Origin: Mytilus galloprovincialis
Taxonomy: Eukaryota > Mollusca > Bivalvia > Mytilida > Mytilidae
Length of the DNA: 64,000 bases
Reading direction: 5' to 3'
NCBI RefSeq assembly: GCF_965363235.1
Contig: NC_134847.1
Span: 73,910,268-73,974,267, forward strand
This document shows positions 32,622-59,300 of this stretch, piece by piece. Position 1 is the first letter of the stretch; the number at the start of each line of letters is the position of its first letter. The translations under genes were made by a program, and so were the position numbers. The notes under the pieces are model-generated. The model was not told the origin of the DNA and searched no databases. It worked only from the letters and a program-made list of their open reading frames with translations.

Positions 32622-32652
32622 ATGATGGAATTACTTCGTTCTATAGTGTTTG
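32622..32652 (+). CDS. ShK/LU/lectin gene, exon 1 (signal peptide start)
   Basis: The exon codes for MMELLRSIVF and one base of the next codon; donor G|GTAAGT. The first exon of the paralogue at 56302 has the same length of 31 nt and the same phase, which supports this short exon. Confidence 0.82.
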
Positions 32653-35600
32653 GTAAGTCTTATTAATTTTTTTCGAAATATTGTAAGTAATTGATTTTTA
32701 GTCAAAAGGTTGTATGGTTAAGAAGACATAGTTATATTATAGTAGATATAAAAGGGAAACTGTTTAATAAATGCTATTATCTTAATAATTCTAAACTTTC
32801 TGATTGTTACTCTTTAGAATTTTCTTATCAATATTATAAAGTTGTGTAGAATATAGGTTTCTTTGTGACCTTAAAAGCAAACCTTACATGCTGCTATAGG
32901 TATTCACAGTCGGATTATTCGTTACTAACCTGTCGAGAAAATAAAGCTTATTGGAATATTCGTCTTGTATAATGTGTATGCTTATCGGCAACTATCACAT
33001 CAGATGGCCTAATAAGAAAAAAGGAAAATATTGTATGGAAAGGAATGTGTTTGGCCTCGTCCAAGTCAGGAACCTCGAACCTTACTATCGTAGATATTTT
33101 CAATACTGACGTTGTATTGTAACGAATGGCCTCCATACACTTAATCACAGATAAAAATAAGAATATGTGGTATGATTTCCAATGTGAAAACTCTCAACCA
33201 AAGACTATATGCAATAAAAATAAACAGTTATATGTCATTAAACGGCCTTCAACAATGAACAAAATCCATAACGAGTAGTCATTTATAAACATGTTCATAA
33301 AGCTATATCATTTATTTTCACATGATTCGGGTACCAAAATAACAATATTTTGAGTCGGTCGTATAAAACTTCGATTTAAAAAAAAGGTCTCATGATAAAA
33401 ATTCTTAGCTACCTTTTTCTAAAAAAAAAAGGAAACGTGCATTTTTTTAACAGAAAATCTTTCACATTATCAAAATATCCATTCATTAACCGATATTTAA
33501 TTTCCGACGCATTAATTCGCTGATATTTTCCCTTATGCAGGGATCTTCACTAATAAACATATCTTTACCACTGCGGCCACCACACAGCGCATGTGCGAGG
33601 GGAGACCCAGTATGCGTAAATGTAAACAAACGTTTGTTTTTTGGCAAATAGATTCTTAAAGAACAAATAAAACAACAAATTATTTAACAACTGTCAAGGA
33701 AGTTTAATTAACAAATGTGGATACTTGGAAAATATAAAAAGACATTTTATGGCTTTTTCAATTCACTTATTCTCACTTTTTCTCCAATTGCTTTGTTTTT
33801 ATTTTATTTAACAATGTCACAATCGGGCAATCTTCTGTAACAAACTCGATAGTTCATTCATTAACTTGCGATCAACAATCACTGACTGAAATATTATATT
33901 AGACTCATATCATATGAATTAAAAGTTGAATCTCGACTGTTACTACAATGTTCTTTCAGTCGTGTTGGTTTCAATTTCGTACGCTGATGTTTGTGAAGAT
34001 GTGGATACGAAGTCATGTGAAATATTAGCTGCTTTACGTCCAGATTTGTGTTCCAATCCTTGTTTATCTAAGCTGTGCACCCGACATTGTGGACATTGCC
34101 GTAAGTTTAACTTAATTGTCATTTTATATGATAGGTTGACATAAGATACTTGTTGTAACGAATGACTTCTATAAACTTATTCACAGATAAAAATATGAAG
34201 ATGTGGTATGTAGAGAGTTGTCTCATTGAAAATCATACCACATCTTCTTATTTTTATCTGTGATTCAGTTTATGGAAGCCATTCGTTACAACAAATATCT
34301 TATGTTAAATATAAACAAATAAATAAAAATTTTAATCATTTTTTAATGTTTTTATATGTTTATCTTGGCAATTATTTATTCTATTCAATCATTATTTCTA
34401 TTCTATTTCATTCATCTGTTTTTAAGAAAAAAATTGGTTTTGTAAAGAAGTGTTTTGATTTCATCAAGCTGTATATTTAATCTTGACTTATTGATTAATT
34501 GTTGCTAATCAACCATTTGCTTTGCAAATATAACAGTCATTGTCATGACCACTCGCAGTATATATAAACATAAAAATTACAAATATGACTCTTATTGGAA
34601 AAGTGATGTTTTGGATATCTTTAGAAGTTTATTTATCCAAATATAATTATGTCACCCGATCGACAATGTCGGGTGACATATTGCTTTTCCTCTGTTTCTT
34701 TTTCTGTATTATTATTATTATTATTATGGCACCCTCAACGGAGTTGGGGTGACATATTGTTATTGTTCGTTTCTTTTTTTTCTTATATTTATTCTTCCAC
34801 ACTTTTTTGTCCATGCTATTTCTCAGAATTGGCTTGGACAATATTGATAGAACTATACCATAATGAGGACCACTATATGAAATTGTGCAATCGGGGTATG
34901 GCATCATCAAGACGGCTGCCGTTGCCATGGAAACTGATAAAATGTGAAAAAAAATGCAAATTCTAAATCTTTCATTATAAGACCTAGCTGGATGAAACTT
35001 TATGGTAATGTTGGTAGTGGTGCCCTGAGGTACCAGCAGTACTTAGCTTCTGCAAAATGGATGCCATTGCCATGGAAACTGGAGAAAAGTTTAACATTGA
35101 CCCTATGGGAAAAAACATCAAAGCAGCATTTTCTTAAGGAATATCAGACCAAACTCAAAGAAACATCATGAATATGCAACATGGCATAAGTCAATGTTGC
35201 AATTGTTGTTGGAATTTTCGAAATGGACAGTGTTACCATGGAAACAGCAAAAATATCCAAAAATTTCAAAATGGTCCAAACTTAATGAAACTTATAATAC
35301 ATGGTAACTGACAACTGGAGATAAGACTTTGGACCTCAGAATTTCCAAAATGGCCGCCGATGCCATGGAAACTGCAAAAATGTTAAAAATTTAAAAAATG
35401 TCCAAATTTGATGAAAATTTACAGAGAAAAACATTCTTATGTCTTTGTGTGCATTCACTGTTTAAACTTTCAAAAAGGCTGCAGTTTAGAGGCAATGTGG
35501 GAAGGGTGCCATCCGCTATTGCTTGCAATGGCAAATCTAGTTATTATTATTTTTCTTCCACCTAATTTTGTCCGCCCGCTTTCTCAGAGCCACAGGAACC

Positions 35601-38600
35601 AATCTGAATGATGGTGCACTATAACAAGGAACCCTGACTTTCCAGTTGCTTTTCAATATTGGAACTAAAAAATAGCTTCCATCACCATGGAAACGGAAAA
35701 ATGGTGAAAAAATATAATTTTGGAGTTAGGTGAATTGTTTGAGAATGCTTAACCTTAAAATCTTTAGATTTTAATACAATGTAGGTGCCCACTATATACT
35801 GCTTAGGGATGATTTTGGCAATCATTGGAACTGCTATGTTGCCATGGATACTACACCAAAAATTTTTAAAATATGGAAATGCTCCAAATTTTATTAAACT
35901 TCACAGTAACAATGAGCAACATTGGTAGATCTGGAAATTGGCGTTGGAATTTCGAAAATATCTGCCGTTACCATGGAAACAATGCAAAACAGGTCAAAAT
36001 GGTCCAAAAACCTAAAAGTAGCATTTACTTTCTTAAAATGGTAGGTCAAATTGATTGAAATTTTGATGGTATGGTCCCTCCCATATACCAATGTGGTATA
36101 TGCCATTAAATTTTGGGAATAGTCTCTGTTGCCATAGGAACCAATCAAAATGTCAAAAATTTCAAAAATTTCAAAATGCTCCAAAATTGATGTAACTTAA
36201 TATATGTCAAGTCTGCATGAGACTTTTGAAGTTGGAATTTCCAAAATGGCCATCGTTGCCATGGAAACTGCAAAAATGTCAAATATTTCCAAAATGCTCC
36301 AAACTTTATGAAACTTAATATTATTGTCAACTGGCATGTATAGATGAGACATTTGACTTTGAAACTTTCAAAATGGCTGCCGTTGCCATTGAAACAGCAA
36401 AAATGTCATGTTTTTAAAATGATCTAAATGTACTGAAAATTTACAGAAAAATGAATAGCCATGCAAATATGTGCATTCACTGTTAAAAGTTTTTGAAATG
36501 GCTGCCGCTTAGTGGCAATGGGGGGAAGGGTGACATCCGCTATTGCTTGCAATAGCAATTCTAGTTAATATTGATTTTCATGTTGGCGTACTTATGAGTG
36601 TCCGCATACTTACAAATCCTTTACAATCAAAAATAATAAATTGTTTTTCTTTTATGTAGTAATCTGTTTAATTAATTATTTTCTATATAAGCTGTTAAAT
36701 GTTACCAGTGCCATGAAATTGATGATCCATCTAATTGTACCAATCTCATTGCCTGTCCAAGTGCAGATCACGTGAGTAGACCAAGGACTTACATTGGTGA
36801 ACATCTTTTTATTCTTTTACGTATGAAGTAAATCTTAAAATCCCTACACAAATTGCAATCAGCAGGTAAATAAATTGTGTCCTAAGCAAGGACTAAAACA
36901 GGCTAACATGACCTCGTTGACTCCATGCATCTGATTTAAATGAAGCAGGATATATTATGAATTATATATTTCAAATTGATTTTTTTTAATTAACTCAATT
37001 TTCTAAATAGAATATATATGTAAGTACTAAATGACTTTAGATCTTACTTAGTTGTCAGTCAAGCATAATCATATGAACAATCGGATTGATTTATCAATTT
37101 ATATTAGAAAACAACAAAAGGCAACATTTAAAAGTACGTTGTAATTTTAAAAGATACATATCTATCCACTAACAGAAGTAATGAAACCTTGATTTGGCCT
37201 TTTATTTATAACGGATGTCATTACGTACGTGGAATAACAACAATTCTTTATTTAGTAATTTAGTAATAGCCGCTGATATTTTAATATGTTCTTTGAAACA
37301 TATTGATTATGTTAATGGTTGCTTGGTATTAACTTATAGTGATAACTATTTGATGCATATCCGGACATTAACATACTAGTATCACCACATCCTGACCCTT
37401 TATTCTTACTCTGAACCAATGAGTCTGTGCTCTTACTCCCAAATTCTGCGTGCTAAGCGGAGAAGCACCAAATATCAATATTTAAATCTTCGATTTTGAT
37501 TCTGTGTGTAATTAAAACAACATCCTCTCATACTCGAGGTAAGCACGCTATATCTCGAGAACAGGCAGGTCCTTATTCATAGTTAACTCAATCGTTAACT
37601 GAAGTGCTTTGAATGTAATCTGAATACTTAAAACGAAGAACTGGCGCTTAATTACGCTCTTCAGTAATGTTAAACTTCATATAATACGTAACAGTACTTA
37701 ACCACTATCTACCATCTATCATTCTAATGCAACAACGTTTGTAACGTTCATTTTGATTGGATAACGTCACTTTCTTACATGGCATCAATTGACAATTGAT
37801 GCTATGGGACGTACGCGCAAGCTCAGACGGCATATGACAGATTTTAAATGCATGTTTTAACGTTGTTTTCTGTCAGTTTCATTAGAATGGAGATAAGAAT
37901 ATTGTATTTTAAGCTCCGACGGCATCAATTTGGGATTTGATGGTCGCAAATACCCGTTTACTGTCTCCGCTAACGCGTCGCCAGTAAACTTAATTTGCGA
38001 CCATCAAATCCCCAATTGATGCCGTCGGAGCTTAAAATACAATACAGTTATCTCCTAATTCTAATGCAGAACCGAAAATTTGAAACCAAACAAGCGAAAA
38101 GCTTCTAAAGATATCCTATTTCACTCATAGTTAATATCGAAAGACGCCGTACCTTGCTATATATATAGTATATTTAAACATGTTAAAAGTGTGTATATAC
38201 TTTATTTCCATGAAAGTTAAACACGTTAAAAGTGTGTATATACTTTATTTCCATGAAAGTTAAACACGTTAAAAGTGTGTATATACTTTATTTCCAGTAC
38301 TGTTATACCACACAGACATTTACAGACGATTTTACTGAAGTTTACAAAATGGGCTGTGCCATTAGAAGTGTAAGTACAACAGGTTTTTAATTTATTTATA
38401 TGCTATATATTTGTTGCTGTTGAATTTGTATGATTTTGTTAACTATTATTTTAATAAATCTATTATCACCAAAATATATCAATAAAAGTTGTACAAAAGA
38501 AAAAAATATAAATAAATTAACATTATATCATGTAGGTATGTCAGCAGTATCTAGGTGGTGCAGAAAGTATGACAAGGAATATAGATGTAAATGGAGCTTG

Positions 38601-41600
38601 TTGTATGCAGGATAAATGCAATAACAAACTACCGTTAGTCATTATGGGAGCAGAGGTTCCAACAACACAACAACCAGGTATATTATGTCATATAGTTCAG
38701 GTTAGTCATTATGGGAGCAGAGGTTCCAACAACACAACAACCAGGTATATTATGTTATATAGTTCAGGTTAGTCATTATGGGAGCAGAGGTTCCAACAAC
38801 ACAACAACCAGGTATATTATGTCATATAATTCAGGTTAGTCATTATGGGAGCAGAGGTTCCAACAACACAACAACCAGGTATATTATGTCATATAGTTCA
38901 GGTTAGTCATTATGGGAGCAGAGGTTCCAACAACGAAACAACCAGGTATATTATGTCATATAGTTTAGGTTAGTCATTATGAGAGCAGAGGTTCCAACAA
39001 CACAACAACCAGGTATATTATGTCATATAGTTCAGGTTAGTCATTATGGGAGCAGAGGTTCCAACAACACAACAACCAGGTATATTATGTCATATAGTTC
39101 AGGTTAGTCATTATGAGAGCAGAGGTTCCAACAACACAACAACCAGGTATATTATGTCATATAGTTCAGGTTAGTCATTATGGGAGCAGAGGTTCCAACA
39201 ACACAACAACCAGGTATATTATGTCATATAGTTCAGGTTAGTCATTATGGGCGCAGAGGTTCCAACAACACAACAACCAGGTATATTATGTCATATAGTT
39301 CAGGTTAGTCATTATGGGAGCAGAGGTTCCAACAACACAACAACCAGGTATATTATGTCATATAGTTCAGGTTAGTCATTATGGGAGCAGAGGTTCCAAC
39401 AACACAACAACCAGGTATATTATGTCATATAGATCAAGAATAACAAACTACCATTAGTCATTATGGGCGCAGAGGTTCCAACAACACAACAACCAGGTAT
39501 ATTATGTCATATAGTTCAGGTTAGTCATTATGGGAGCAGAGGTTCCAACAACACAACAACCAGGTATATTATGTCATATAGTTCAGGTTAGTCATTATGA
39601 GAGCAGAGGTTCCAACAACACAACAACCAGGTATATTATGTCATATAGTTCAGGTTAGTCATTATGGGAGCAGAGGTTCCAACAACACAACAACCAGGTA
39701 TATTATGTCATATAGTTCAGGTTAGTCATTATGGGCGCAGAGGTTCCAACAACACAACAACCAGGTATATTATGTCATATAGTTCAGGTTAGTCATTATG
39801 GGAGCAGAGGTTCCAACAACACAACAACCAGGTATATTATGTCATATAGTTCAGGTTAGTCATTATGGGAGCAGAGGTTCCAACAACACAACAACCAGGT
39901 ATATTATGTCATATAGTTCAGGTTAGTCATTATGGGCGCAGAGGTTCCAACAACACAACAACCAGGTATATTATGTCTTATAGATCAGCATTAACAAAGA
40001 TAACGGAAGATGTTAATAAACTTTATCGACAAAGTTTTTTCCTGCAACTTTTTTTTCATAGCCAAACACAAATCTTTAAAAAAAAAAGTGAACGCTACTT
40101 CAAAAGAATTGTGAACTTCTTGATTATACAAAGTTGCGAATAGATAAGAAATATATATATTTTTTTTTTCAAATATTAATTCGAGTTTCAATCAGTACGT
40201 GTCAATACACCTACAGACTTGTTTATTCTAGAAAAGAAGAAAGAAATTGTTCTACCTAACTCTTTCATCCGCTTTTTGATATAAAAAAGAAGATGTGGTA
40301 TGATTGCCAATGAGACAACTATCCACAAAAGACCAAAATGACACATACATTAACAACTCTAGGTCATCGTACGGCCTTCAACAATGAGCAAAGCCCATAC
40401 CGTATAGTCAGCTATAAAAACCTGTTAAAAAATCCAACATATCAAACCCCTATGCGTAAAAGTATGTGTTGTAATCATCACACTAGTACATATTTATAAA
40501 GCTGAGGGTAAAAAAGATATAAGATAATTTTGGTTTGAAGTATTTTCTTTTATTTTTAAGTTACATTCGTCAATACAACAGCAGACCCCAATTCCTGTAA
40601 AAATTTAGATGATGGCCTATGTCTGAGATTAGCATTGGCAAGCCCAGGCATATGTTCTGATACATGTTTTGCTGATAATGTTTGTCCACGCATGTGTGGA
40701 TCATGTTGTAAGTACACTCTTAATTTGTAGCGAGACGACACCTATTAATCGGTTTTCGTCTTTGCATTGCATTTTTAATTATTTGTTTCCCTTTTTAACG
40801 CTTTTCATATAGTCAGAACTGATTGAGATGATAATTGTATCCGTTGTAGTAAAATTTCATGTCGAAAAAGTATTTTATACCATGCTCATACAAGAATATA
40901 AAACTACAAGAAATTGCCTACCGTATTTATCGTTACATCAATATCATGCAAAGCTTATTTATAGGTTGGCTTTAACGCATTGTTTTCATGTGTTAAAAAT
41001 TTTAAAACGTGTATTGTCTATTTGTCTTTTTGTTTGTTGTTTAGTTGTTGTTGCTTTCCATTTATCTTTCATCGAGACATATTGTATTAATCATCCAATC
41101 CGTTCGAGGATTACTTTATTGTGGCCTAACGTTCAATTCAAACAAATACATAATAATGTCACTACACAATTATAATGCTGCTTTTGTCAATATATATTTT
41201 TCAGTGAACTGTTACACTTGTAATGATATTGACAACATAACAGACTGTACAACTATCAATGTTTGTCAATCTGGACACGTAAGATGAATAACATATGTAT
41301 AACATCAACAAAAAACATGAAATATTGTCTGTTTTATTGTTTTATCAACTTTGATATAACCCAAAACAAATGAAATCAAAGTCGCGAAGTTAAGATCGTA
41401 AGAACCATATCGTTGATTTTTTTCTGACAGAATAGAGGTTTCTCTACACGCGATCGATATGTAACCTAAACTTACTTTCATTAAGCAGATTTAACTATCA
41501 TACATATCATTCAATTGATATTGGTGATTAAACATTTGTTACAAATGAGTTGTCTTCCTTTAGACAGACTTTAATACAATATATGAGATAATATTGGTTA

Positions 41601-44600
41601 CTAGCGTTTTTCCAGAGGCCTTTTGCCTGACTCCATATATGTTTATGAAAAAAACGGTATCTTTTACAGTTGAAGACTAAAAGAATGTCCTCTTTTGTTC
41701 ATCAGACCGAAAAATTAGTTCGTATTAGAATAATAATGAGCATTTAAATTTGTATTGTTTTAGGAATGTTTTACCCTTGAGACATTAAGCATTGACCTGA
41801 GACCAGTGTTTAGAGTTGGATGTATCGAGGAAAAGGTAGATTATTCAAATTTAAAGCCATAGTCTCTCCATTTTCAGTTTAAAAGAAAAAAAAAAGGAAC
41901 TTTCTTTTGAGAATCAAATCAAAATCGGGGCATGGCCACGTACAAACATGTCAATAATAAGCTTTGAAACTAAATCCATCAATGATTTACCAATTATTTG
42001 TTCTTATACTGTGCTGTTATACCACTGTCATAGATTAGCAGGACAGGGAGTTGCATGCTCACAACATAACTCCGCCATTTTCTATATTGTCACTAAAGAA
42101 GTTCATGTTAATCAGTAGTTCTTCTTTGTTGTGGTATATCATATTTAGTTTTTGTTTATTGTTTTGTACATAAATTGGACTATAAGTATTCTCTTTTGAG
42201 GTGGTTATAACTATTATTATTGTTTTATAGTTGTCATGGGTGGGCCTTAATTGCTTACTATAATGTATTGGTTGTTTTTATGTTTACGGTCGTATAGTGA
42301 CCCATGGTAGTTAACTTTAGCATCATTTATTCTCTTGTGAAAAGTTGGTTCTTAAATAAAACAAGGCTGTTATTTTGTAAATTTATGTGAGCAAAACCAT
42401 CATTTGATCATTTGTATTTCCCGGTTAACATCTTATTGAAGATTGTTCGTCTAAGAGTAGTTATTTTCTTTATGTTTTCAGTTATGCTCGCGATTCCAAG
42501 CTAGCACCGGGAATATTTTTGGCCGACGGGATGGATTTTCCTTAAAAGGAGGATGTTGTAAGAGTGATTTGTGTAATGACCACGTGGAAACGATAAACAA
42601 CCAATTGACAACAACAACAACCCAACAACCAACAACATTGGGTAAGTAATCATAAAATGTTAAATGGTGTCAAAATAACTGGATTCTAAACGATATCAAT
42701 TTTGCTGCACCAAAACACATTTCGACAATTGATGTCAATTCAATGTTGCTCGAGACCAGAATTTGGAAAATGTATACCCTAATATAAACCAATTGTGAAT
42801 AGATACGGTACGTTCAGCAAATCAAATTTCATTTTAGAACACCTCGATTTAATCGTCTATGATGTTAATTTGTCATTATTACAAAGAGACTGTTAATCTG
42901 TAGATTATTTTGAATATGGCGACGTAGAATCGGTACATTTATATCGTTACTGATTTACTGAACGTGAAAGACTTTTCGTGAAATAATAATGTCTGGATAC
43001 GGTTTTTACACAAACCAGGTACCGTTTTTAACAGTCATTTGAGAAGTTTGAACAGCGATTTGAGAAAAATAGCTGTTATGCCATACACTTGCCCATAAAA
43101 TAAATAATATAGAAGAAAAACGAATCGGAGAACAATAATAGGGGAGTGCTGAAAATATAGATCATTTAATGCACAAAGTGGTACATCTAGGTCAAAATAA
43201 AAGATTAATCATCCGAACTGCAATTTTGCTCTATAGAGATTGTGGTCAACAAGCAGATGTTTTCAATTGCATAACATTAAAGATGATTTTATTGATCTAA
43301 AGTGGCTCTTAAAGAAAACCAAACTCATTTTTACTGGCATTTAATTTCCTCACCAATAAATTCTGCAGATACCCTTCATTCTTTTATCAATCAAACATTA
43401 AATAAATCACAACGTGGTTCAAGTTTATCAATTCGCTGCAGATCATCCGATTATAGGACAAAAAACAGATTCATATTTAAGAGGACAAATGTCGAAGATA
43501 AGGAAGAATCTACAAAAGAAATAAAACGAAACGAAAAACTGTATACCTGTTGGCAAATCAGACCAGAAGGGGAAACAAGAACTATCTTTAAAAAAGATAT
43601 CCAACGTATTTAAATTTGAGTATATGTTTAAAACTATCATTTCGATAACCTTCAGAAGCACAAAGATACCATTTAAATAACGTTTTTTTCTGTTTGTGTT
43701 CAGTATTCCCTGTCCTCGTATCTTTCTGTTTACATTCAGCAAAACGCCGCGGAAATCTCACATGCGGAGGTGCGTTCTAAAAGTCATGTACGTTCGTACA
43801 ACAAAGTTTACATTAAAAATTATATAATTGTCCTGAATAAACACCTGTCACGGATGCAAAGAGCTATTGGAGAAACAATTATGTTAGTAAAAACATAAAT
43901 CTTTGTAAGATCTAGTTCAAATATTTATAGTTTTTTACTTGCTTTCCATCACGATATAATTAACGAGACGTTTTTTCAAACACAACCAAATCACCCACCA
44001 TGACAGCATTTTGTCCAATCACAGAAAGGATTTTCGAGCATGCGTATTCTGTTGCCATAGTTAAGCGTCCTTAAGTTCAAAGGGCACAAACCGAAAGTAT
44101 ACCGACTACGTCGAAAAAAAAGGATAAAACTGCTGTTGATAGACAAAATGTATATTAACAGTGATTTATTAAAACCAAACACCAATGGAGCTGGTAGTTG
44201 TTTTCCACTCGTTCGGTTGTTTGATAACGGTTTTTATGGCGTACCTCATTCTGAATTTTGCATTGGAGTTTCGGGTATTTCTGTTATACTATTTTGTTAG
44301 AATGATTCTAATATGTTGATATACAAGCTTATATGTTATCATGATATGTATTGTATATACTTATATGAGGATTGATGTTTTCTTTTGTCAGGTTGTAACA
44401 ACTTACATCACCACTGTCCGGCAGGATTCCACTCTTTGGATTCGTCTTGCTATATGATTGGGCTACAACGTATGTCTTGGCAAGATGCTAAGGTTATAAC
44501 CAATATTATTCATTTATTATTCGATATAGTGTCCATACGTAAATATAAAAAAAAGAAGATGTGGTATGATTGCCAATGAGACAACTATCCACAAAAGACC

Positions 44601-47600
44601 AAAATGACAGACATTAACAACTATAGGTCACCGTATGGCCTTCAGCAATGAGCAAAGCCCATACCGCATAGTCAGCTATAAAAGGCCCTGATAAGACAAT
44701 GTAAAACAATTCAAACGAGAAAACTAACGGCCTTATTTATGTAAAAAAAAAATGAACGAAAAACAAATATGTAACACATAAACAAACGACAACCACTGAA
44801 TTTTACAGGCTCCTGACTTGGGACAGGCACATACATAAATAATGCGGCGGGGTTAAACATGTTAAATGTTTATTATTTCAAATTTTCAGGGGATCCAATG
44901 CTGATTCTATATTCCTTTCACAAAAGAAAACCGAGTGGGAAAAACAAAATCCTAGTTTGTAATTTCTAGGATCATTTTAACAGCTAACTGACAGTCTAGT
45001 AATTTCAAAATTCTGAAATCACGCAAATCTATCAAGAGCTATCTTTGAAATATAACTAATTTCTATAAGTGTTATTGGTTTTTTTTTTTATCTCTTCAGA
45101 GCTACTGCGAATCACACTGCGCCAGACTAGTTGACTTTTCATCTAGGTCTAATATGCAAGATGTTTTTGCTTTATTAGTTCCGCATCGTCAAGGAACCTA
45201 TCAAGGTTAGATTGTATTTTGTTAATTTCAGAACAGTGCTTAACATTTAATTTTATTCGATAAAACGATACGGTCATTATAATTTAATATTATATTTCTG
45301 AATGTAAAATAAATAAGTGATACAAAAAAATGTGTAAATCTGATGGAAATGTCTATCCTGCAATTTGTAACGAAATTCTGATATTTCCATTGGCTATTCG
45401 TTTAGTCAGTAATAACTTTCATATTGAACCTCAAACTCTCGTTTTTTTTAATCTATATGCAAAGCCATAATCACATACTTGTTTGGACTTTATTGAAATT
45501 TTTAAAAGAATTAACGTCGTGAAAGATCGGGTACCGCGTTTTGGGTTTGTTTTTTTTCAGATCGTGAATGGGATCATGAAAGATCTTGTGTCGTCTATAT
45601 GTCATTGCATAAATTATTGAAAAAAAATTGTTAAAATCATTTTGTTATTATGTAAATTGATTATGTTATTTCACGGTTGTAATTCGGTTAAACGAGAGAA
45701 TTGATCGTGAAAGAATATTTAACGGTTGTCAAGTATTGCGAGACTTTCATGAAAGCTCTGGTACCGGATCGTGAAATAATTTTAATGTAAATTCTAGTTC
45801 AGAATCTGTGAAAAAATCGCTTAATTTTCAAAACGCGGAACAAATCCGAAATAAAAAATAAGTCTGTCAAATGGTTGAATTTCCTCAACATTACTGTGCA
45901 AAAAGATAAAGAAAATATGCAATACTTTATGAAAAAACACAAAAGGCGCAATACATGTCTATGAATTGATTAAAAAAAACCACGTTATTGTACCTATAAT
46001 GGTCATATTTCAATATATCATTATATATTTGAAATTCAATCTTTGGTGTATCTGATAGTACAGTAAATAAAAGTATATAAAAAAGAGGATGTGGTATGAT
46101 TGCCAATGAGACAACTATCTACAAAAGACCAAAATGACACAGACATTAACAACTATAGGCCTTCGTACGGCCTTCAACAATGAGAAAAGTCCATACTGCA
46201 TAGTCAGCTATAAAAGGCCCCGATAAGACAATGTAAAACAATTCAAACGAGAAAACTAACGGCCTTATTTACGTAAAAAAATGAACGAAAAACAAATATG
46301 TAACACATAAACAAACGACAATCACTGATTTACAGGCTCCTGACGTGGGACAGGCACATACATAAATAATGTGGCGGGATTAAACATGTTAGCGGGATCC
46401 CAACCCTCCCCCTAACCTGGGACAGTGGTATAACAGTACAACATAAGAACGTATGCCCTTCCCTTAACAGCGTTTGGTATGCTTATGAAAACATTGCATT
46501 TTGTTGAATTTTCATCAAACTTGATCGTGAAAGATCAGGCAACGCGTTATTTTGATCGTAAAAGAAAATGCGTGACCAGACTTTTGATATACCTGCAACT
46601 GGTTGAAGCCTGTAACTATTTTGATAAGAATGAACATTAAAGCTATCATTTATTTTAAATTCAACAGTTTACCTCGAAGGTTTAAATAACAACAACTAAA
46701 ATTGTGTCTAAATCAGTGTGAAAAATTCAGCTCTAAGAATCGGTTTAATACAATTCATGCAGACCGCCACTATTTAGCCAATAATATGGGTATGCAACGT
46801 TTAAACCAACTTGTTAAACATCAACCAAAAACCTACAGAAAAAAACAGCATCTTTCATGAACAATTTGAGATTGAACTATAACCAACAATTTGTGCAACA
46901 GTACTTTCTTAAGTTCTATGTATCTTTATATACAACGTAGCAAATGTGGATTGATCTCCAATTAGATAACTATATACTACAGACTAAAGAATACCGAATA
47001 CGAACACTTTATTTCTTGTAAAACTACATTTACATAGTTATAGAGAACATATATAAATATAACTATAAGGTACAATTTTTACAAGCATGTGTTAACAATA
47101 CAATGAAATTAACTTGGAGGACTGACTTTCACATTTATAACTTTGATAAATTTACATAGTTTTTCTAATATTACAATATTACATGAATTAAACAGTTGAT
47201 CAAATTTATAGATATTAGGGTTTGACCAGCAGTATGTAGGTAAACATTTCTTTCTTTTAAACTTAAAAGATCCACAATTCATAATATAATGGTACTCGTC
47301 ACCAATGTCGTTTTAGTCACAGAGACGGCAATGCTGAAATGTCTCGTCTGCTTTACTTATGATAGTTTATTTGTTGAAAGTCTGTAATATTAAGGGTTTT
47401 ACTAGAAATGTGTCAAATACGCTTAAGATTGTCAATGGGTCATAAAATGAAGTCAAGGTCAGATGAACCATGCCATACATATCTCTACAAACATCCCGTA
47501 CACCAAATATAGGTGTTTCGATCCTTACAGTACCTTAGAAACTGACAAATGTAAAAGTTTTGTTTGGCCAATTAATTCGGAACATAATGTCGAAGGTATA

Positions 47601-50598
47601 TGAACCCTGACCGACAGCAAGGCATAGACATCTTACTATCATTCAATATATCAAATACAATTGACGTCATGACATTTGCAGGCTTATGGAGGTAGAACGT
47701 CATTGTAAGAAAAATTATAAACATGATAAATATCGAGATTCAATGAAATACGTATGTGAAGAAGAGATAAACACTTTCCTTGGCTTCTTTTGTGCTGACG
47801 CCGAACTATACATCATATATAAGTTTTGAAGAAGTTTTACTTTATCGTTTGAAGTGAAAAATATTTGAATCTACATTTTAAATTGATACAAAAAAAATCA
47901 AATTTCTATAAATTTCCATTCATAAATGAAATCTGAACTATATCCCTAACAAATGCATTGTATAAAATGCATATAAGAGAACACCTACTTATAAACTGTT
48001 ACGCGTCGCATACTAAGTATAGAGACATGCATAATAAATCTAAATTAAAATAAAAAAAAAGAATTCTTTAAGCTTACTTTGACAAGTTTTAAACTAACTT
48101 CATTTCAACAAGTTTAAATTACATGTTCTAAAAAAGTGCGCTGCTTTATAAATTTTCTTTCATAAATAGAGTCTGAAATATATCCATAATAAATGCACCG
48201 TATCAAATGCATATACGAGAACACCTACTTATAAACTGATACGCTTCACATACTATGTTAAGAGACATGCATGATAAATCTAATTAAAAGACGAATTTCA
48301 ACAAGTTTAAATTACATGTTCTAAAATAGAGCTAAGAATTGTTTATATTGTAGTAAATTTAAGTCTTTGAAATTTTATTCAAATACGCTATTGAACATTA
48401 CTAAGAGCCAATGAATACAATAATTTTGTATTTTATAAATTAGTGCCTGCAATAAATAAAAGCCGTCATAGAACAGTCTCATTTTCATACCGATATTCGA
48501 AATGACTCGTTTCATTGCTATTACAACACATATGTCATAATAACATGACAGAGAGGTTTGTTTCGGAATATTCTAGATAAATATACAAAAAGCTAATTTT
48601 AGACAGTGTACCATCCTAAGCTTGGAAGTGGCTAGTCACATATAGTTAATGGCGTTTTTCTCACAATGACGTTCTACCTCCATAAGCCTGGATATGTCGT
48701 GGCTGGTCACATATATGAAACATGCACACAGACATGTACACCATATACGAAAAACCGTGGCGCTATATCATACAAAAGAGGGACGAAAGATACCAAAGGG
48801 ACAGTCAAACTCATAAATCTAAAACAAACTGACAACGCCATGGCTAAAAATGAAAAAGACAAACAAAACACAGCACACATGACACAACATAGAAAACTAA
48901 AGAATAAACAACACGAACCCCCCAAAAAACTAGGGGTATATATTCAAAAGGCCAAACAACATAAAATATATTCAAAAGGCCAAACAACATAAAATATATT
49001 CAAAAGGCCAAACAACATAAAATATATTCAAAAGGCCAAACAACATAAAACGAACATTGCCAAATGATGCTATTTCTTTAATTACAATCGGCAATAACCT
49101 CAAAATCTTGTGCATTTCCACATCATCTTCACAATATTTGTGAGTTGTTTCTGTAATGTTATCTGCATCTTCAACCTGTATCACTGGCTCACCTACACTG
49201 GATTGCTTTTTTCTGCGTTTTATTGACCATTGTCTTTTCTTATTGCAGTAGTTGTTATTTCTTTTTCTTTTCATTTTCTGAAAATACGAATACTTTGAAA
49301 TGCTTCAATTTATTGAGGATCTTGGCCTTTCTAGTTTTTCTCAATACTAACAACAAATATTAATAATCATATAATTTAAGAATTATTTGAACGTCTTCGT
49401 AGCATCAGACCTTTCACGATCCTTTTCACGATCTTCAAAAAGCGGTCCGTGATGTTTCACGATCGGAACATCAATTATGTGTAAATATTTCCTTTTTTTT
49501 ACCAAGTTTCAGATTATGTTTCTACAGAATAACTATGACAACCATTTGATTCATTCATTCAAATAGAATGACCTTATTCGAAATACAAGTAGTTTATTTT
49601 ATACGAATTTGTGAAAAAATCATGTGTGTTTATATATTTATATATCATTGAAATGTCGAGAAGCAATCTACCTTTTGTTGTTTTGTATACTATATACTTT
49701 TAAAACTGGATATTCTCACATACTGATCCAAATGTTGAACCATTTTGACAGACAGTTTAATTTTGTTGTAAATTTGTCTGTGTAATTAATTAAATTCGAT
49801 TATTTACTACCTTTCATATGTCTTCCCAATTAAATTTCTTTCACGATCCAGTACCAGAGCTTTCACGATCGTCTCGAAATATCTGACCACCGTTAGATAT
49901 TCTTTCACGATAATTTCTCTCGTTAAACCGAATGACACCGTAGTATTTGTATAGCTAAAGACTGGACATTAATGAGTCGTTCACTATTTGTGAGGAAATA
50001 ATCTTTTATGCTATGAGGGTTCAAAGACAAAAAGATCTGGGTTTTCAATAACATCTTATGAACGCAGTAATCCGTCGTACCCTTACGCAATTACCTTATT
50101 AATCTGTCCGTCCGTCAACATTTTTATGTCCTTATTAATATAACATATTGTGTTAGACGTGTGAAATGTTAAATCATACTCTTTTTTTAAAGCAATGAGT
50201 TATCAAATGTGTATACTGTATATTATAAAAAAAAACTATCAAAATTAATTTCTTGTATTCTTGTATTTTCTTAAATTATTGTTTTACCTTTCTGTTTCAT
50301 ATATATATACATATATATATATATATGTTGCACTTATATATTATTTTAAGACGCAAGAGTATGGACCGATGCTACATATAGTCGGAGTAAATGGGTATGG
50401 AGTCACAGTGGTAATTATATCAGCTCACGTTCCTTTAGAAATTTGGTCTATACACACTCCACCACTCATGCTTGTGGCTTTGCTATGGTTCATACCAGTT
50501 CAGGAGGATTTATTTTTTCACCTACTACAACCGAAGATTTGGAAGCCGACAAGTGTAGTGCAACATATCTTCCACTCTGTGAAGCTTCCAGAAACTAA
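32622..50598 (+). CDS. Secreted ShK-LU-ShK-LU-C-type-lectin protein (12 exons)
   Basis: Exons join as 32622-32652, 33960-34100, 36692-36771, 38298-38369, 38536-38677, 40561-40707, 41205-41278, 41764-41835, 42482-42641, 44392-44492, 45100-45205 and 50351-50598. The total is 1374 nt, i.e. 457 residues plus stop. All introns are GT-AG and all phases fit. Residues 1-19 are a signal peptide; a second ATG follows the first directly. ShK1 is 22-57, LU1 (Ly6/uPAR three-finger fold, ten cysteines, CCxxxxCN end) 61-137, ShK2 168-204, LU2 207-285, a Thr/Gln linker 287-306 and the C-type lectin-like domain 308-454. No GPI signal or membrane segment follows, so it should be a soluble secreted protein. ShK domains in other animals block ion channels or mediate protein contacts, and LU domains bind proteins; the role here is unknown. 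A tandem paralogue starts at 56302. Confidence 0.9.
33121..33295 (+). repeat. R1 repeat fragment in intron 1
   Basis: It reads from GTAACGAATGGCCTCCATAC through AATATGTGGTATGATTTCCA to AACGGCCTTCAACAATGAAC, the head of family R1 as also seen at 34139-34312. Confidence 0.7.
33960..34100 (+). CDS. ShK/LU/lectin gene, exon 2 (signal end and ShK domain 1)
   Basis: Acceptor CTTTCAG|TC and donor TGCC|GTAAGT. It codes for VVLVSISYA and a ShK-like domain with spacing C-x7-C-x10-C-x3-C-x4-C-x3-C-x2-C, i.e. seven cysteines rather than the usual six. It shares 27 of 36 residues with the matching domain of the gene at 56302. Confidence 0.9.
34139..34312. repeat. Palindrome made of two head-to-head R1 ends
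   Basis: Arms of about 73 bp (34139-34211 and 34234-34312) pair with few mismatches around a loop of about 22 bp; AGAAGATGTGGTATG-like words face each other. It lies 38 bp after the exon 2 donor, so the transcript can form a long hairpin there. Confidence 0.8.
34640..36565 (+). repeat. Array of about ten diverged 130-160 bp units
   Basis: Words like GCCGTTGCCATGGAAACTGC followed by AAAATGTCAAA and TCCAAACTTATGAAACTT recur near 34926, 35070, 35233, 35360, 35685, 35840, 35972, 36130, 36257 and 36385. A boundary block GGGTGCCATCCGCTATTGCT appears at 35505 and again at 36530, so a larger unit was also duplicated. The left edge holds a perfect 11-bp stem with loop (TATGTCACCCG and CGGGTGACATA). 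Open frames within are not genes. Confidence 0.75.
36692..36771 (+). CDS. ShK/LU/lectin gene, exon 3 (LU domain 1, first part)
   Basis: Acceptor TATATAAG|CT and donor CAC|GTGAGT. It codes for PVKCYQCHEIDDPSNC and the NLIACPSADH segment, loop 1 of a Ly6/uPAR fold. The length of 80 nt equals exon 3 of the paralogue. Confidence 0.9.
37881..38067. repeat. Palindromic element in intron 3
   Basis: Arms of about 83 bp (37881-37963 and 37983-38067) pair closely; the core reads AGCTCCGACGGCATCAATT and its complement. It is probably a hairpin-type MITE. A related CATTCTAATGC word occurs at 37719. Confidence 0.75.
38182..38297 (+). repeat. 43-bp unit repeated three times up to the exon 4 acceptor
   Basis: GTTAAAAGTGTGTATATACT begins at 38182, 38225 and 38268, a period of 43. 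The first two copies continue TTTATTTCCATGAAAG, while the third continues TTTATTTCCAG and forms the true 3' splice site. Confidence 0.9.
38298..38369 (+). CDS. ShK/LU/lectin gene, exon 4 (LU domain 1, middle)
   Basis: It codes for YCYTTQTFTDDF and YKMGCAIRS; 72 nt, phase 0 at both ends. The paralogue has the same length and the related YCYTTQSFASDF. Confidence 0.9.
38536..38677 (+). CDS. ShK/LU/lectin gene, exon 5 (LU domain 1 end and linker)
   Basis: Acceptor CATGTAG|GTATGT and donor CCAG|GTATAT. It codes for VCQQYLGG, then RNIDVNGACCMQDKCNN, the closing CCxxxxCN of the LU fold, and a short linker VIMGAEVPTTQQP. The last 44 bases and the donor belong to the first unit of the 67-bp array. 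Confidence 0.88.
38634..39983 (+). repeat. 67-bp minisatellite, 20 units, each with an exon-5 end and donor site
   Basis: Units start with GTTAGTCATTATGGGAGCAG at 38634, 38701 and then every 67 bp to 39371, and again from 39453 to 39922. Between units 12 and 13 is a 15-bp enlarged junction containing AATAACAAACTACCATTAG, a copy of more upstream exon 5 sequence. Every unit keeps CAACCAG|GTATATTATG, the splice donor context. Variants at one site (GGGAGC, GAGAGC, GGGCGC) occur in the same order in units 7-13 and 14-20. Confidence 0.93.
40268..40440 (+). repeat. R1 repeat fragment in intron 5
   Basis: It starts AAGAAGATGTGGTATGATTG and contains TCGTACGGCCTTCAACAATG and AAGCCCATACCG. It is a 5' part of R1 only. 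Confidence 0.8.
40561..40707 (+). CDS. ShK/LU/lectin gene, exon 6 (ShK domain 2)
   Basis: Acceptor TTTTTAAG|TT and donor TGTT|GTAAGT. It codes for a short Asn/Thr linker and a second seven-cysteine ShK-like domain ending VCPRMCGSC. Phase 1 in and 1 out, as in exon 2. Confidence 0.9.
41205..41278 (+). CDS. ShK/LU/lectin gene, exon 7 (LU domain 2, first part)
   Basis: Acceptor TTTTCAG|TG and donor CAC|GTAAGA. It codes for NCYTCNDIDNITDC and INVCQSGH. It is 74 nt, equal to exon 7 of the paralogue. Confidence 0.9.
41764..41835 (+). CDS. ShK/LU/lectin gene, exon 8 (LU domain 2, middle)
   Basis: Acceptor TTTTAG|GAATG and donor AAAAG|GTAGAT. It codes for ECFTLETLSIDL and FRVGCIEEK; 72 nt and phase 0 like exon 4. 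Confidence 0.88.
42482..42641 (+). CDS. ShK/LU/lectin gene, exon 9 (LU domain 2 end and Thr-rich linker)
   Basis: Acceptor TTTTCAG|TTATGC and donor TTGG|GTAAGT. It codes for LCSRFQASTG, GGCCKSDLCND and a linker rich in Thr and Gln leading to the lectin domain. Confidence 0.88.
42642..44391 (+). other. Intron 9
   Basis: No repeat family used here is recognised. An open frame at 43302-43613 (103 residues, Lys/Arg/Ser-rich) has no recognisable domain and is overlapped by an equally long frame on the other strand; I regard both as chance. Confidence 0.5.
44392..44492 (+). CDS. ShK/LU/lectin gene, exon 10 (lectin-like domain, part 1)
   Basis: Acceptor TTTGTCAG|GT and donor GCTAAG|GTTATA. It codes for GCNNLHHHCPAGFHSLDSSC and the MSWQDAK helix start, the classic N-terminal half of a long-form C-type lectin-like domain. 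Confidence 0.9.
44550..44872 (+). repeat. R1 repeat copy in intron 10
   Basis: It runs from AAAAGAAGATGTGGTATGAT to GCGGGGTTAAACATG and is highly similar to 46080-46380. It lies 57 bp after exon 10. Confidence 0.85.
45100..45205 (+). CDS. ShK/LU/lectin gene, exon 11 (lectin-like domain, part 2)
   Basis: Acceptor CTCTTCAG|AGC and donor CAAG|GTTAGA. It codes for SYCESHCARLVDFSSRSN and MQDVFALLV, matching helix 2 and strand 2 of the fold. Confidence 0.88.
46080..46455 (+). repeat. R1 repeat copy
   Basis: It runs from AAAAGAGGATGTGGTATGAT to AGTACAACATAAGAACG and includes GCGGGATCCCAACCCTCC. It is inserted between the outer and inner end motifs of the DNA transposon. Confidence 0.85.
47662..48708. 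repeat. Inverted pair with a perfect 27-bp core
   Basis: 47680-47706 and 48663-48689 are exact inverted copies (core AGGCTTATGGAGGTAGAACG), and similarity extends outward and inward for about 10-15 bp. They are about 956 bp apart. Between them, 47905-48080 and 48145-48310 are a diverged direct duplication sharing AGAACACCTACTTATAAACT. Confidence 0.7.
48776..49052 (-). mobile_element. Penelope-type 3' end with a 28-bp tandem repeat
   Basis: 48776-48925 is the complement of the 3' UTR seen at 7700-7805 and 55617-55770. It is followed at 48941-49052 by four copies of a 28-bp unit containing TATTCAAAAGGCCAAACAAC (starts 48941, 48969, 48997 and 49025). No coding part is left. Confidence 0.75.
48990..49274 (-). 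pseudogene. Possible transposase N-terminus
   Basis: The basic start MKRKRNNNYCNKKRQW and sequel to about residue 77 look protein-like. The remaining C-terminal residues of the open frame come from the 28-bp tandem repeat, so the original frame is cut off. It lies in intron 11 of the host gene, in the opposite direction, inside the DNA transposon. Confidence 0.35.
50351..50598 (+). CDS. ShK/LU/lectin gene, exon 12 (lectin-like domain end and stop)
   Basis: Acceptor ATTTTAAG|AC follows a TA-rich stretch. It codes for DARVWTDATYSRSKWVWSHS, then HACGFAM and KCSATYLPLCEA, the conserved C-terminal cysteines of the lectin fold, and stop TAA at 50596-50598. The EPN or QPD sugar motif and the WND motif of calcium-binding lectins are not present. 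Confidence 0.9.
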
Positions 50599-51931: not shown

Positions 51932-52002
51932 GCATTGGTGGTTCAGTGGTAGAATGCTCGCCTGCCACACGGGCGGCCAGGGTTCGATTCCCGGCCGATG
52001 CA
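51932..52002 (+). tRNA. tRNA-Gly (anticodon GCC)
   Basis: A 71-nt gene with a 7-bp acceptor stem (GCATTGG with CCGATGC, one G-T pair), box A-like TGGTTCAGTGGTAGAATGC, box B GGTTCGATTCC and anticodon GCC at 51964-51966. The discriminator base is A and CCA is not encoded, as in animals. The anticodon stem has one C-A mismatch next to the loop. A T-rich run (TTTCTTTTTTC) follows and can end polymerase III transcription. Confidence 0.95.
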
Positions 52003-56332: not shown

Positions 56333-59300
56333 GTAAGTATTAAACTAAATAAAATCATCTTTATTTAATATCTTTATGAAATTTCCAAAATTCGATTGAG
56401 GAAAATTTAAATTGCTGAGATATGTTTATGCACTATCATACACCTTTATTTAGATTCTATAAATTCAAATTTAGTAAATTGTATAATTGCATTGTTAAAT
56501 TTGACTTTACCAAGCGGAAGCAAGCAAGTCGAAAAAATTCCTTGTTTTGTGTAGTTATTCAAAAATTGTGAAATCAGAAGATTATTTGGAATAAGTGGAA
56601 ACAAAAGTACATTTAACCGAAAATTCTTTGTATCCCTACTTTTGTCGAATCTGTGTTGATGAAAGTTTCTTATAAAAAGGAATGAATTTCCTTTAATCAG
56701 TATGAATGTGTTTGTCTTTCTGAATTCGTTAATAAATATAAATACCTATATATTCCTAGAATTAATGTAATCAAGATAATAATTCGGAAATCTTTACAAT
56801 TCCTTTTAACTTGAAGTAAAAAAATTCAACATTATTTTTTACAGTTACAGGTGCCATGCTCTGTGCATCAGCATGTAATGACGTAGACACGAAGGCCTGT
56901 GAACTACTTGCTAACCAAAGACCAGATTTATGTAGTGACCCATGTTTGTCTACATTATGTAACCGATATTGCGGACATTGTCGTGAGTATCCGAGTGGCA
57001 AAATAAAAATGAAGATTATATATTTTTTAATCCTAGACAATTTACACTATTTTTTACTTGGTTACTTTAAAAATAATGGAAAACTCCAATTAACAACGCT
57101 TAATGTTTTATGACACGAAATCACATTTATTGCACAATTATAGAAAAAATAGCATTTCTTATTTTAATTTATGTTTTTCAGCCGTGAAGTGTTATCAGTG
57201 CGATGAGGTTAATTTTCCCCAGAACTGCACAAACGTCGTAGAGTGTCCTTCGAAGGATCATGTAAGGTTCATTTGATTATGTCATGTTTGTTGTTGGTTA
57301 GAATACATTGCTTTAATACAGTGATTTGTAACGCACACATAATGCAACGTGTTCTTGTTGGTAGTTTGAACTCAATTTGTTTTAGAAGATAAATACAGGC
57401 AATAGTACCGCTGACCGAAATTCATAAATCAAATAAAAAATAAAACAATTTCGAGTTACAAAGTAAAACCGAGGGAAATCGATCTTCTGAGAAACAGGAA
57501 GAAGATAGTTAGCAAGCAATCGAAAACATAAGTCGTAAAAAAACACAAAACCTGGACCGAAAGAAAATCGACGAAAAAGCGAAGGTCCACAGACATGGAA
57601 AACCTGATATTGGGCAAGACTCATCGCACAAAGAGCAGTGGTTATCATGACAATGTGTGATTCGAAAGGTTTCTGTGACAATAGTGGCACTCGTCGTTTT
57701 CATCATAGCAAGTAAATATTCGGGGAAAAGTTCATTACGACTGTGTGATATGGGATTGCGATAAAGACAGGTGAAACATAGTTCTAGTATTCCATTAAAG
57801 TCAACAAACTTATGACTGCATCAGTTAAACTGTGTTAGTTTTTAAATACACATACTTACAGTAAAGAGAATAGCGATTTGGTTCTTCTCTAGTTGAAATT
57901 TAAATATTAATACGTAATTTCCTTATTACATAGTTTATTTATAATATGAGTTACAAACTAAAACAATATTAGTTTTGCCTAAAGAAACAATGAATAATAT
58001 AATCCAAAGTGTCATTATTTTTATATTTCAGTATTGCTATACTACTCAAAGTTTTGCGTCCGATTTTAGGGAAATTTACCGGATGGGATGTGCTCTAAAA
58101 TCTGTAAGTTTAATTAATTTTCAGACTTCGTAATATCATTTTGAATGTTTTTATTTATTTTCATGAAACTCTTATTACAGATGCTGCATTCAAATTAGTG
58201 TCACACTCTTTACAGCACAAAAATAAGGTTAACAGGAAACCAGTTGCAATGGATGTTTTTTACCTTTAACAATTCATCTCGAACCTAATCTGGTTTAATC
58301 GGTGACATTTGTTTTAAATTTTGTTACATGTGTAAGTCAATTAAATAACCAATACATTGAAAGATATGAATTGACAATATATCAACTATAGAATATGAAT
58401 AACTTCCCTTTTATTGGATTTGGAATTGCATTTTGCTCTTAATGTTGAAAGTTTCATTGAAACAGATATGCAGTCTTTACTTGGGTCCAGATACCAACAG
58501 GAGAAACATAGACGTCAATGGGGCCTGCTGTACGCAAGACAATTGTAATAACAGATTACCCTACGATATAGTTACTTCACAGACACTCCCTTCTCAGTCC
58601 GTATCTACAGGTTAGAATTTACTTTGTATAGGAAGGCGGCCAACGGGCAATTAAATCATAAATACAATGGTTCATTTTATATATATATTATATTCAGGTA
58701 TGTATTATGGGGAAATCTAATGTTTTATGAATGTCTATCTTAATTTTTGTTAAAACAATATCATGTACAAATGAGTTTCGCCAAAGTTTCTGAAAATACA
58801 TCACATTGTTAATCACACGACCGAATATTTATCTATGAAGAAATTAAATCAAAAATGTGGTCACACTGAAGGGTATATTCGACGTGTACGCCACATTTTA
58901 TTTGGTTATCTTGAATAGACAGAAAAAAAATATTACAATCATTACTTATAATTTGATTCTAAATTCCGTTGATGACGTCACGTTCACATAACAAACATAT
59001 GTCTTTGAGCTGGTAGGCAAAATACTTTCAGCCAATCAGAAGACGTGCTACATTCCAAAGTTAAATGTTAACGTGACGTTAATGACAAATAAAGATAAAT
59101 TCTAAACACAAGGCTCATTTTTACATGTAAGTGAATGCGATTTCCAGAATTTAGAAATGCATGCAACAAATAAAAACTGCAACCCAGTAAATTAATCACA
59201 ATTTTTTTAAGTTATCGGATATAATTTTGAAAATGAATAAAGCAGTGTATCATGTGTAAAATATGAATTAGCTAATGACAAATATTTTTATGATTGACTT

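What the first reader, a model, noticed from the sequence alone, without database searches (positions are those of the whole stretch)
32622..50598. A secreted protein with the order ShK - LU - ShK - LU - C-type lectin-like domain
Twelve exons join in a single frame with all splice phases matching, giving 457 residues. Each domain is common in animals, but I know of no described protein with this order. It would combine two channel- or protein-binding type modules with a lectin-like end in one soluble molecule. That the order is new is my judgement without a database search.
Basis: partly seen in the sequence, partly recalled or inferred. Interest (0 to 1): 0.85.

Follow-up and report, generated by a model that had tools for sequence, protein, structure and literature searches.

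The report
Mussel five-domain secreted protein family
A mussel gene really does encode what looks like a secreted protein built of ShK-like, Ly6-like, ShK-like, Ly6-like and lectin-like parts, and it belongs to a many-copy family in that genome whose two ShK-like parts may be tied together by a sulphur bridge; what it does is still unknown.

Summary
Twelve exons at 32622-50598 join with matching phases into 457 residues. New support: the same genome holds nine more genes with the same eleven domain exons in order, six read as DNA and three mapped as ordered matches; one starts in this window. So the lectin-like exons belong to this gene. A shorter form (ShK-LU-CTLD) occurs twice on C13. Pfam finds LU twice and the CTLD narrowly; the ShK parts match by cysteine pattern only, below Pfam's threshold.

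The channel-blocker hint is not supported: no Lys-Tyr dyad in 26 of 26 ShK-like domains; EPN, QPD and a calcium-site WND are absent from eight CTLDs or CTLD tips checked. Both ShK-like parts carry a seventh cysteine. Of 21 genes where both were read, 19 have it in both, 2 in neither, none in one, suggesting a ShK1-ShK2 disulphide (C45-C191); four more first domains have it with no second domain found. Function is inferred: a soluble binding protein of defence or mucus. Eight open-access paper searches showed no record of this order. Expression was not testable.

The parts
32622..32652 (+). exon 1: start codon and first part of the signal peptide (residues 1-11)
   Evidence: hydrophobic N-terminus
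33960..34100 (+). exon 2, phase 1-1: rest of signal peptide and ShK1-like domain (residues 11-58), seven Cys, extra one C45
36692..36771 (+). exon 3, phase 1-0: LU1 first part
38298..38369 (+). exon 4, phase 0-0: LU1 second part
38536..38677 (+). exon 5, phase 0-1: LU1 third part and linker
38634..39988 (+). tandem array, 20.0 copies of 67 bp by TRF, copying the 3' end of exon 5 with its splice donor; a donor-containing stretch was found 18 times; the first copy is the exon end itself
40561..40707 (+). exon 6, phase 1-1: ShK2-like domain (residues 156-205), seven Cys, extra one C191
41205..41278 (+). exon 7, phase 1-0: LU2 first part
41764..41835 (+). exon 8, phase 0-0: LU2 second part
42482..42641 (+). 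exon 9, phase 0-1: LU2 third part (FGRR stretch) and Thr-rich linker
44392..44492 (+). exon 10, phase 1-0: CTLD first part; weak donor AAG|GTTATA
45100..45205 (+). exon 11, phase 0-1: CTLD second part
50351..50598 (+). exon 12: CTLD last part and stop codon
56845..56982 (+). neighbouring gene G2: ShK1-like exon
57182..57261 (+). neighbouring gene G2: LU1 first exon
58032..58103 (+). neighbouring gene G2: LU1 second exon
58466..58610 (+). neighbouring gene G2: LU1 third exon
59327..59479 (+). neighbouring gene G2: ShK2-like exon (one of two possible acceptors)
59923..59996 (+). neighbouring gene G2: LU2 first exon; its remaining exons lie beyond the window (C10:73978855-73986076)

Best explanation
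The gene is one of a family in this mussel genome that makes heavily disulphide-bonded five-domain proteins, secreted to judge by the N-terminus. Shown from sequence: the gene structure, the recurrence of the order in ten genes, constraint on the exons of all domains, and faster divergence of linkers and CTLD than of the LU domains. Inferred from co-occurrence: the seventh cysteines of ShK1 (C45) and ShK2 (C191) bond to each other, so that ShK1, LU1 and ShK2 form a closed, rigid base. Inferred: the base and LU2 present the variable CTLD, on a Thr-rich linker, as a non-classical binding tip without calcium-sugar motifs. Most likely it acts outside the cell as a soluble recognition or binding protein of the haemolymph or mucus, with a defence role the likeliest use.
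For: Splicing. Paralogues. Phase-1 borders of the domain units, which allow whole units to be added or lost in frame. LU: whole-protein Pfam score above cut-off in 6 of 6 proteins; Lectin_C above cut-off in 2 of 6, G1 at 24.4 against 22.6 bits and G5 at 34.4. Extra Cys in both ShK-like domains in 19 of 21 genes, in neither in 2, in one only in 0 (read; counted by hand; 1/210 = 0.0048). The two C13 copies, in which no second ShK was found, lack it too. Cys of the chain is even in six of six spliced proteins once Cys in the N-terminal signal region are set aside by eye: 42 in five, 40 in G3. Mean pairwise identity over six genes: LU2 58%, LU1 55%, ShK1 54%, ShK2 46%, CTLD 32%, linkers 25%. No strong later hydrophobic span in G1.
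Against: No RNA, protein or structure was available, so expression, secretion and the disulphide are not shown. The Cys test has few independent events: G3, the C13 pair, and C10:51.82, whose ShK1 has also lost core cysteines. The two domains of a gene were paired by position and strand; outside the ten mapped genes they were not shown to be in one transcript. Four position-1 domains have the seventh Cys although no second ShK was found for them at E up to 1: C5:84.862, C5:84.931, C10:84.069 and C10:46.151; the two on C5 are followed by CTLD exons. If they truly have one ShK they speak against the bridge within one chain. G6 has lost one LU1 cysteine; G11 and G12 have each lost a core ShK1 cysteine but keep the extra one, and the third LU2 exon of G12 matches in two pieces, so some copies may be decaying. 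A defence role rests on family size, divergence and bivalve lectin biology only. The changing CTLD could also be loss of constraint; among the C11 copies it is about as conserved as the rest.
Confidence: 0.5

Rival explanations
1. A toxin-like or receptor-modulating protein: the ShK-like parts block potassium channels or the LU parts act on nicotinic receptors, with the CTLD as a targeting end.
For: ShK-like cysteine pattern and LU domains; channel block by ShK peptides (PMC6409789, passages). That LU proteins can act on nicotinic receptors: abstract start of PMC6616073 in a listing.
Against: No Lys-Tyr dyad in 26 of 26 ShK-like domains; that dyad is regarded as essential for toxin binding to Kv channels (PMC6409789, passages). 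The LU action was not tested.
Confidence: 0.1
2. A structural mucus, adhesive or matrix protein in which the Cys-rich modules only give stability and cross-linking.
For: Limpet mucus protein P-vulgata_14 joins a C-type lectin-like domain and a dyad-less ShKT, for which its authors proposed a part in stable disulphide bridges (PMC7333891, passages). ShK and C-type lectin annotations are over-represented in digestive gland of another mussel (PMC5549309, passages), though that paper links its ShK domains to metalloproteases.
Against: The same authors suggest an antibacterial part for P-vulgata_14. The CTLD diverges most among the domains, as expected of a binding end.
Confidence: 0.25
3. The seventh cysteines pair between two protein chains, giving dimers, rather than within one chain.
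For: A dimer bonded at both ShK parts would also make both cysteines come and go together. Four position-1 domains have the seventh Cys with no second ShK found.
Against: A dimer through one part alone would allow two-ShK genes with only one extra cysteine; 0 of 21 were seen.
Confidence: 0.3
4. Two genes: the ShK-LU exons end at exon 9 and the CTLD exons belong to a separate lectin.
For: Exon 10 has a weak donor, and one hydrophobic ATG frame lies between exons 9 and 10 at 44185.
Against: CTLD exons follow the second LU in the same order in ten genes on two large contigs, with matching phases in the six spliced, and follow a single LU in two more on C13.
Confidence: 0.04

Closest known systems
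Bivalve-specific CTLD-containing multidomain proteins (CTLDcps, category C of PMC10140915)
   Same: Uncharacterized proteins joining a CTLD to other domains, found in mussels, without general orthology outside bivalves
   Different: Its text names WSC, sushi, scavenger receptor, apextrin and immunoglobulin domains, among others; the words ShK, Ly6 and uPAR do not occur in its main text (passages and section 8). Its supplements could not be read, so this family may be listed there unnamed.
Limpet mucus protein P-vulgata_14 (PMC7333891)
   Same: C-type lectin-like domain and ShKT in one chain from a mollusc's mucus, predicted secreted, dyad lost
   Different: Also has peptidase M12A, ApeC, CUB, kringle and sushi domains; no LU listed; other order (passages)
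Gastropod ShKT proteins of Cumia (PMC6409789)
   Same: Secreted mollusc ShK domains with frequent gene and domain duplication
   Different: Single-domain peptides, or joined to M12 or CAP domains; the words C-type lectin and Ly6 do not occur (passages)
Ly6/uPAR (LU) proteins
   Same: Ten-cysteine LU domain; Pfam PF00021 above the whole-protein cut-off
   Different: LU units alternate with ShK-like units and the chain ends in a CTLD; no membrane anchor looked likely in G1

Membership tests
LU (Ly6/uPAR) domain | Pfam PF00021 above curated whole-protein cut-off | tested here: met
   G1 39 bits against 24.8 with two stretches; above in 6 of 6 proteins
LU (Ly6/uPAR) domain | ten cysteines ending CC-x4-CN (recalled pattern) | tested here: met
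   read in both LU domains of G1; LU1 of G6 lacks one Cys
ShK domain | Pfam PF01549 above curated cut-off | tested here: not met
   0 of 6 proteins at E up to 1; 2 of 8 ShK1 pieces (best E 0.0035) and 0 of 7 ShK2 pieces at E up to 10; the window's own pieces not matched; 0 of 68 listed genome matches in this family
ShK domain | six cysteines in ShK order | tested here: met
   six core Cys in 26 of 26 aligned, plus a seventh in 23; 26 of 48 read were aligned, and three of those left out have damaged cores. Profile comparison with seven ordinary mussel ShK: probability 77 over the C-terminal half. One PDB match, a ShTK domain protein, E 0.032
ShK channel blocker | Lys-Tyr dyad | tested here: not met
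   0 of 26
C-type lectin-like domain | Pfam PF00059 above cut-off | tested here: met
   G1 24.4 against 22.6 bits and G5 34.4; G2, G3, G4 and G7 not matched at E up to 1
Calcium-dependent sugar-binding C-type lectin | EPN or QPD and WND motifs (recalled) | tested here: not met
   EPN and QPD absent in 8 of 8 checked (six C-terminal parts and two last exons); one WND, in G7, lies in SWNDAK near the CTLD start, not at the calcium site
C-type lectin-like domain | CTLD fold | not testable with these tools
   Structure prediction takes only unspliced translations; not sent

The most novel reading that the evidence does not exclude
A mussel-expanded protein family with an undescribed order in which two ShK-like domains, separated by a whole LU domain, are locked together by a dedicated seventh-cysteine bridge, making a ring-shaped base for a fast-changing lectin-like tip; where the second ShK is lost, the bridge cysteine goes too.
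Probability: 0.35. Interest if true: 0.6.

Novelty: new variant of a known kind. Interest (0 to 1): 0.45.

Why it matters
It gives bivalve biology a clearly bounded, multi-copy family of probably secreted proteins that domain scans easily miss, because the ShK-like parts fall below Pfam's threshold and the CTLD often does. The predicted ShK-to-ShK bridge is a simple test of how small Cys-rich units are joined into a larger binding protein.

Tried and rejected
Rejected: separate CTLD gene (the order recurs); channel blocker (no dyad); classical lectin (motifs absent). A bridge between two further CTLD cysteines (C308, C347; eight Cys after the last LU in 6 of 6 spliced proteins) could not be judged: the two C13 copies lack the second one, but where their exon with the first one ends is unsure. 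Use of the intron-5 repeats as extra exons or donors: the 67-bp unit is not a multiple of three and reading past the normal donor meets a stop (read by eye); not pursued. The C13 short form as ancestor of the long form: its LU scores closer to LU2 than to LU1 for 5 of 6 genes with the first copy and 6 of 6 with the second (first and third LU exons only), so loss of the LU1-ShK2 block is at least as likely. Animal relatives outside this genome could not be searched: the tool holds no relatives of it, and the contig collections are of prokaryotes, viruses and metagenomes by their descriptions; I did not search those.

Full report
Observation. The window is C10:73910268-73974267 of a 1.385-Gb assembly of 331 contigs. 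The genome carries genes of the myticin family: 17 matches, best E 6.4e-24, and 0 of 14 control genomes. The twelve exons join exactly as described into 457 residues. The chain starts with a hydrophobic stretch and shows no strong later hydrophobic span, so it is read as secreted. Pfam finds UPAR_LY6 in two stretches (whole protein 39 bits, cut-off 24.8) and Lectin_C once, narrowly (24.4 against 22.6 bits), and no ShK.

The gene is one of a family. A search of the own genome with the joined protein gave 90 exon matches, the gene's own included, many of them in ordered sets elsewhere. Reading the DNA of five blocks gave six further genes with the same eleven domain exons in order: G2 next door (C10:73967132-73986076), G3 (C10:24547623-24563587), G4, G5 and G6 in tandem on C10 at 66.82-66.78 Mb, minus strand, and G7 (C11:75241910-75257982) (last exon of G6). 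Five of these (G2, G3, G4, G5, G7) were spliced in frame with the same phases, without their first exon; one junction in G3 needs a GC donor. Three more on C11 (G10 at 75.87 Mb, G11 at 76.11 Mb, G12 at 79.63 Mb) show all eleven exons as ordered matches, the third LU2 exon of G12 in two pieces. That makes ten genes, the window gene included. Partial sets with ShK1, ShK2 and a CTLD exon lie on C10 at 51.95 Mb (CTLD match weak, E 0.029), C10 at 67.10 Mb and C5 at 84.79 Mb. Two genes on C13 read ShK-LU-CTLD; the middle LU exon of one is a candidate only and that of the other was not sought. At eight other places both ShK-like exons were found but the CTLD was not established. Counts are lower bounds, because the tool scores only the best candidates.

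Domain borders. The domain units (ShK: one exon; LU: three; CTLD: three, the last ending the gene) begin, and ShK and LU also end, at phase-1 introns, so units can be gained or lost without breaking the frame. The LU of the C13 short form resembles LU2 rather than LU1 (5 of 6 genes for the first copy, 6 of 6 for the second), and its ShK was aligned with ShK1 (56% to G1). The short form may thus have arisen by loss of the LU1-ShK2 block.

What the domains are. LU is firm: above cut-off in 6 of 6 proteins. Lectin_C was matched in 2 of 6 (G1, G5); the others are CTLDs by homology to these, with a shared W-x-W and cysteines. ShK is a pattern-level call: 2 of 8 ShK1 pieces (best E 0.0035) and 0 of 7 ShK2 pieces match Pfam ShK, the window's own two not at all, and none of the 68 matches of a genome search with Pfam ShK lies in the family. 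A profile of 26 domains finds one PDB chain, a ShTK domain protein, at E 0.032; profile comparison with seven ordinary mussel ShK domains gives probability 77 over the C-terminal half.

The seventh cysteine. I read 48 ShK-like domains, 27 of position 1 and 21 of position 2 (tallied by hand; a broken fragment at C11:75.753, L073, left out). Of these, 26 were aligned; the 22 left out are mostly near-duplicates and include L051, L053 and L075, which have lost core cysteines, and L068 and L075, which lack the extra one. In the aligned set 23 of 26 have a seventh Cys between the third and fourth core Cys; 0 of 7 ordinary mussel ShK have it. In ShK2 of G2 it sits one residue further on. In the 21 genes with both domains read (paired by position and strand), 19 have it in both, 2 (G3 and C10:51.82) in neither, 0 in one; the chance figure is 1/210, which overstates the evidence because the genes are related. 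G3 sits among genes that have the cysteines (unrooted tree of six), so it has probably lost both. C10:51.82 is damaged in ShK1 and is weak evidence. The two C13 genes have no ShK2 match and no extra Cys. Against this, four position-1 domains (C5:84.862, C5:84.931, C10:84.069, C10:46.151) have the seventh Cys though no second ShK was found for them at E up to 1; the stretches between were not read, so they are open. On balance this points to a bridge between the two ShK-like parts, C45 to C191 in the window protein; a two-chain dimer is the main rival.

Selection. In three gene pairs, dN lay below dS in 33 of 33 exon comparisons, with dS saturated in 22 (matched parts only). Mean identity over 15 gene pairs: LU2 58%, LU1 55%, ShK1 54%, ShK2 46%, CTLD 32%, linkers 25%. 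So the base is kept and the tip diverges. Among the recent C11 copies, however, the CTLD is about as conserved as the rest.

Mechanism. No Lys-Tyr dyad occurs in 26 of 26 domains. The dyad is regarded as essential for toxin binding to Kv channels (PMC6409789, passages; see also PMC6917819, passages). EPN and QPD are absent from 8 of 8 CTLD parts checked; the one WND, in G7, is near the CTLD start. I therefore read the protein as a soluble, non-classical binding protein. Defence or mucus is the likeliest setting, from bivalve lectin biology (PMC10140915, passages and section 8; PMC5549309, passages, which links its ShK domains to metalloproteases); this is inference.

Known or new. Eight searches of open-access papers on this order (a ninth was on the dyad) showed no protein of this order in their listings, some of which were cut (for example 25 of 139 papers and 12 of 202). 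The bivalve CTLD survey does not contain the words ShK, Ly6 or uPAR in its main text; its supplements were not readable here. The nearest printed relative that I saw is limpet P-vulgata_14, which has a C-type lectin-like and a dyad-less ShKT domain among others (PMC7333891, passages). Domain-architecture databases could not be queried, so the order may be recorded there. I rate it a new variant of a known kind: a new arrangement and family of known animal modules.

Noticed in passing
38634-39988; C11:75875200-75875640 (L091); C5:84931039-84931193: Tandem copies of an exon's 3' end together with its splice donor: about 20 copies of 67 bp after exon 5 here, three copies of another unit after exon 5 of G10 (counted by eye), and two partial matches after a ShK exon on C5. 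The same kind of array seems to have arisen more than once in this family.
   Followed up: partly
C10:51838130-51883736 of the own genome: A cluster of myticin-family matches (antimicrobial peptides) lies between two members of this family, at 51.82 and 51.95 Mb.
   Followed up: no
56845-59996 and beyond the window: Next-door paralogue G2 starts in the window and ends near C10:73986076.
   Followed up: yes
62353-63850: Minus-strand open frames that look, by eye, like a tyrosine recombinase and an RNase H of a DIRS-like retroelement, inside an intron of G2.
   Followed up: no
16288-18278: Two arrays of what looks like the same 21-bp unit in opposite orientation about 1 kb apart, as in an inverted-repeat element.
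   Followed up: no
51932-52002: tRNA-Gly (GCC) just downstream of the gene.
   Followed up: no
C11:75887692-75891431 of the own genome: A second set of LU2c and CTLD exons follows gene G10, a possible alternative end or partial duplicate.
   Followed up: no
C5:84862751-84882586 and C5:84930878-84941555 of the own genome: Two further family members with a seven-Cys ShK, a first LU exon and a last CTLD exon, but no second ShK found.
   Followed up: partly
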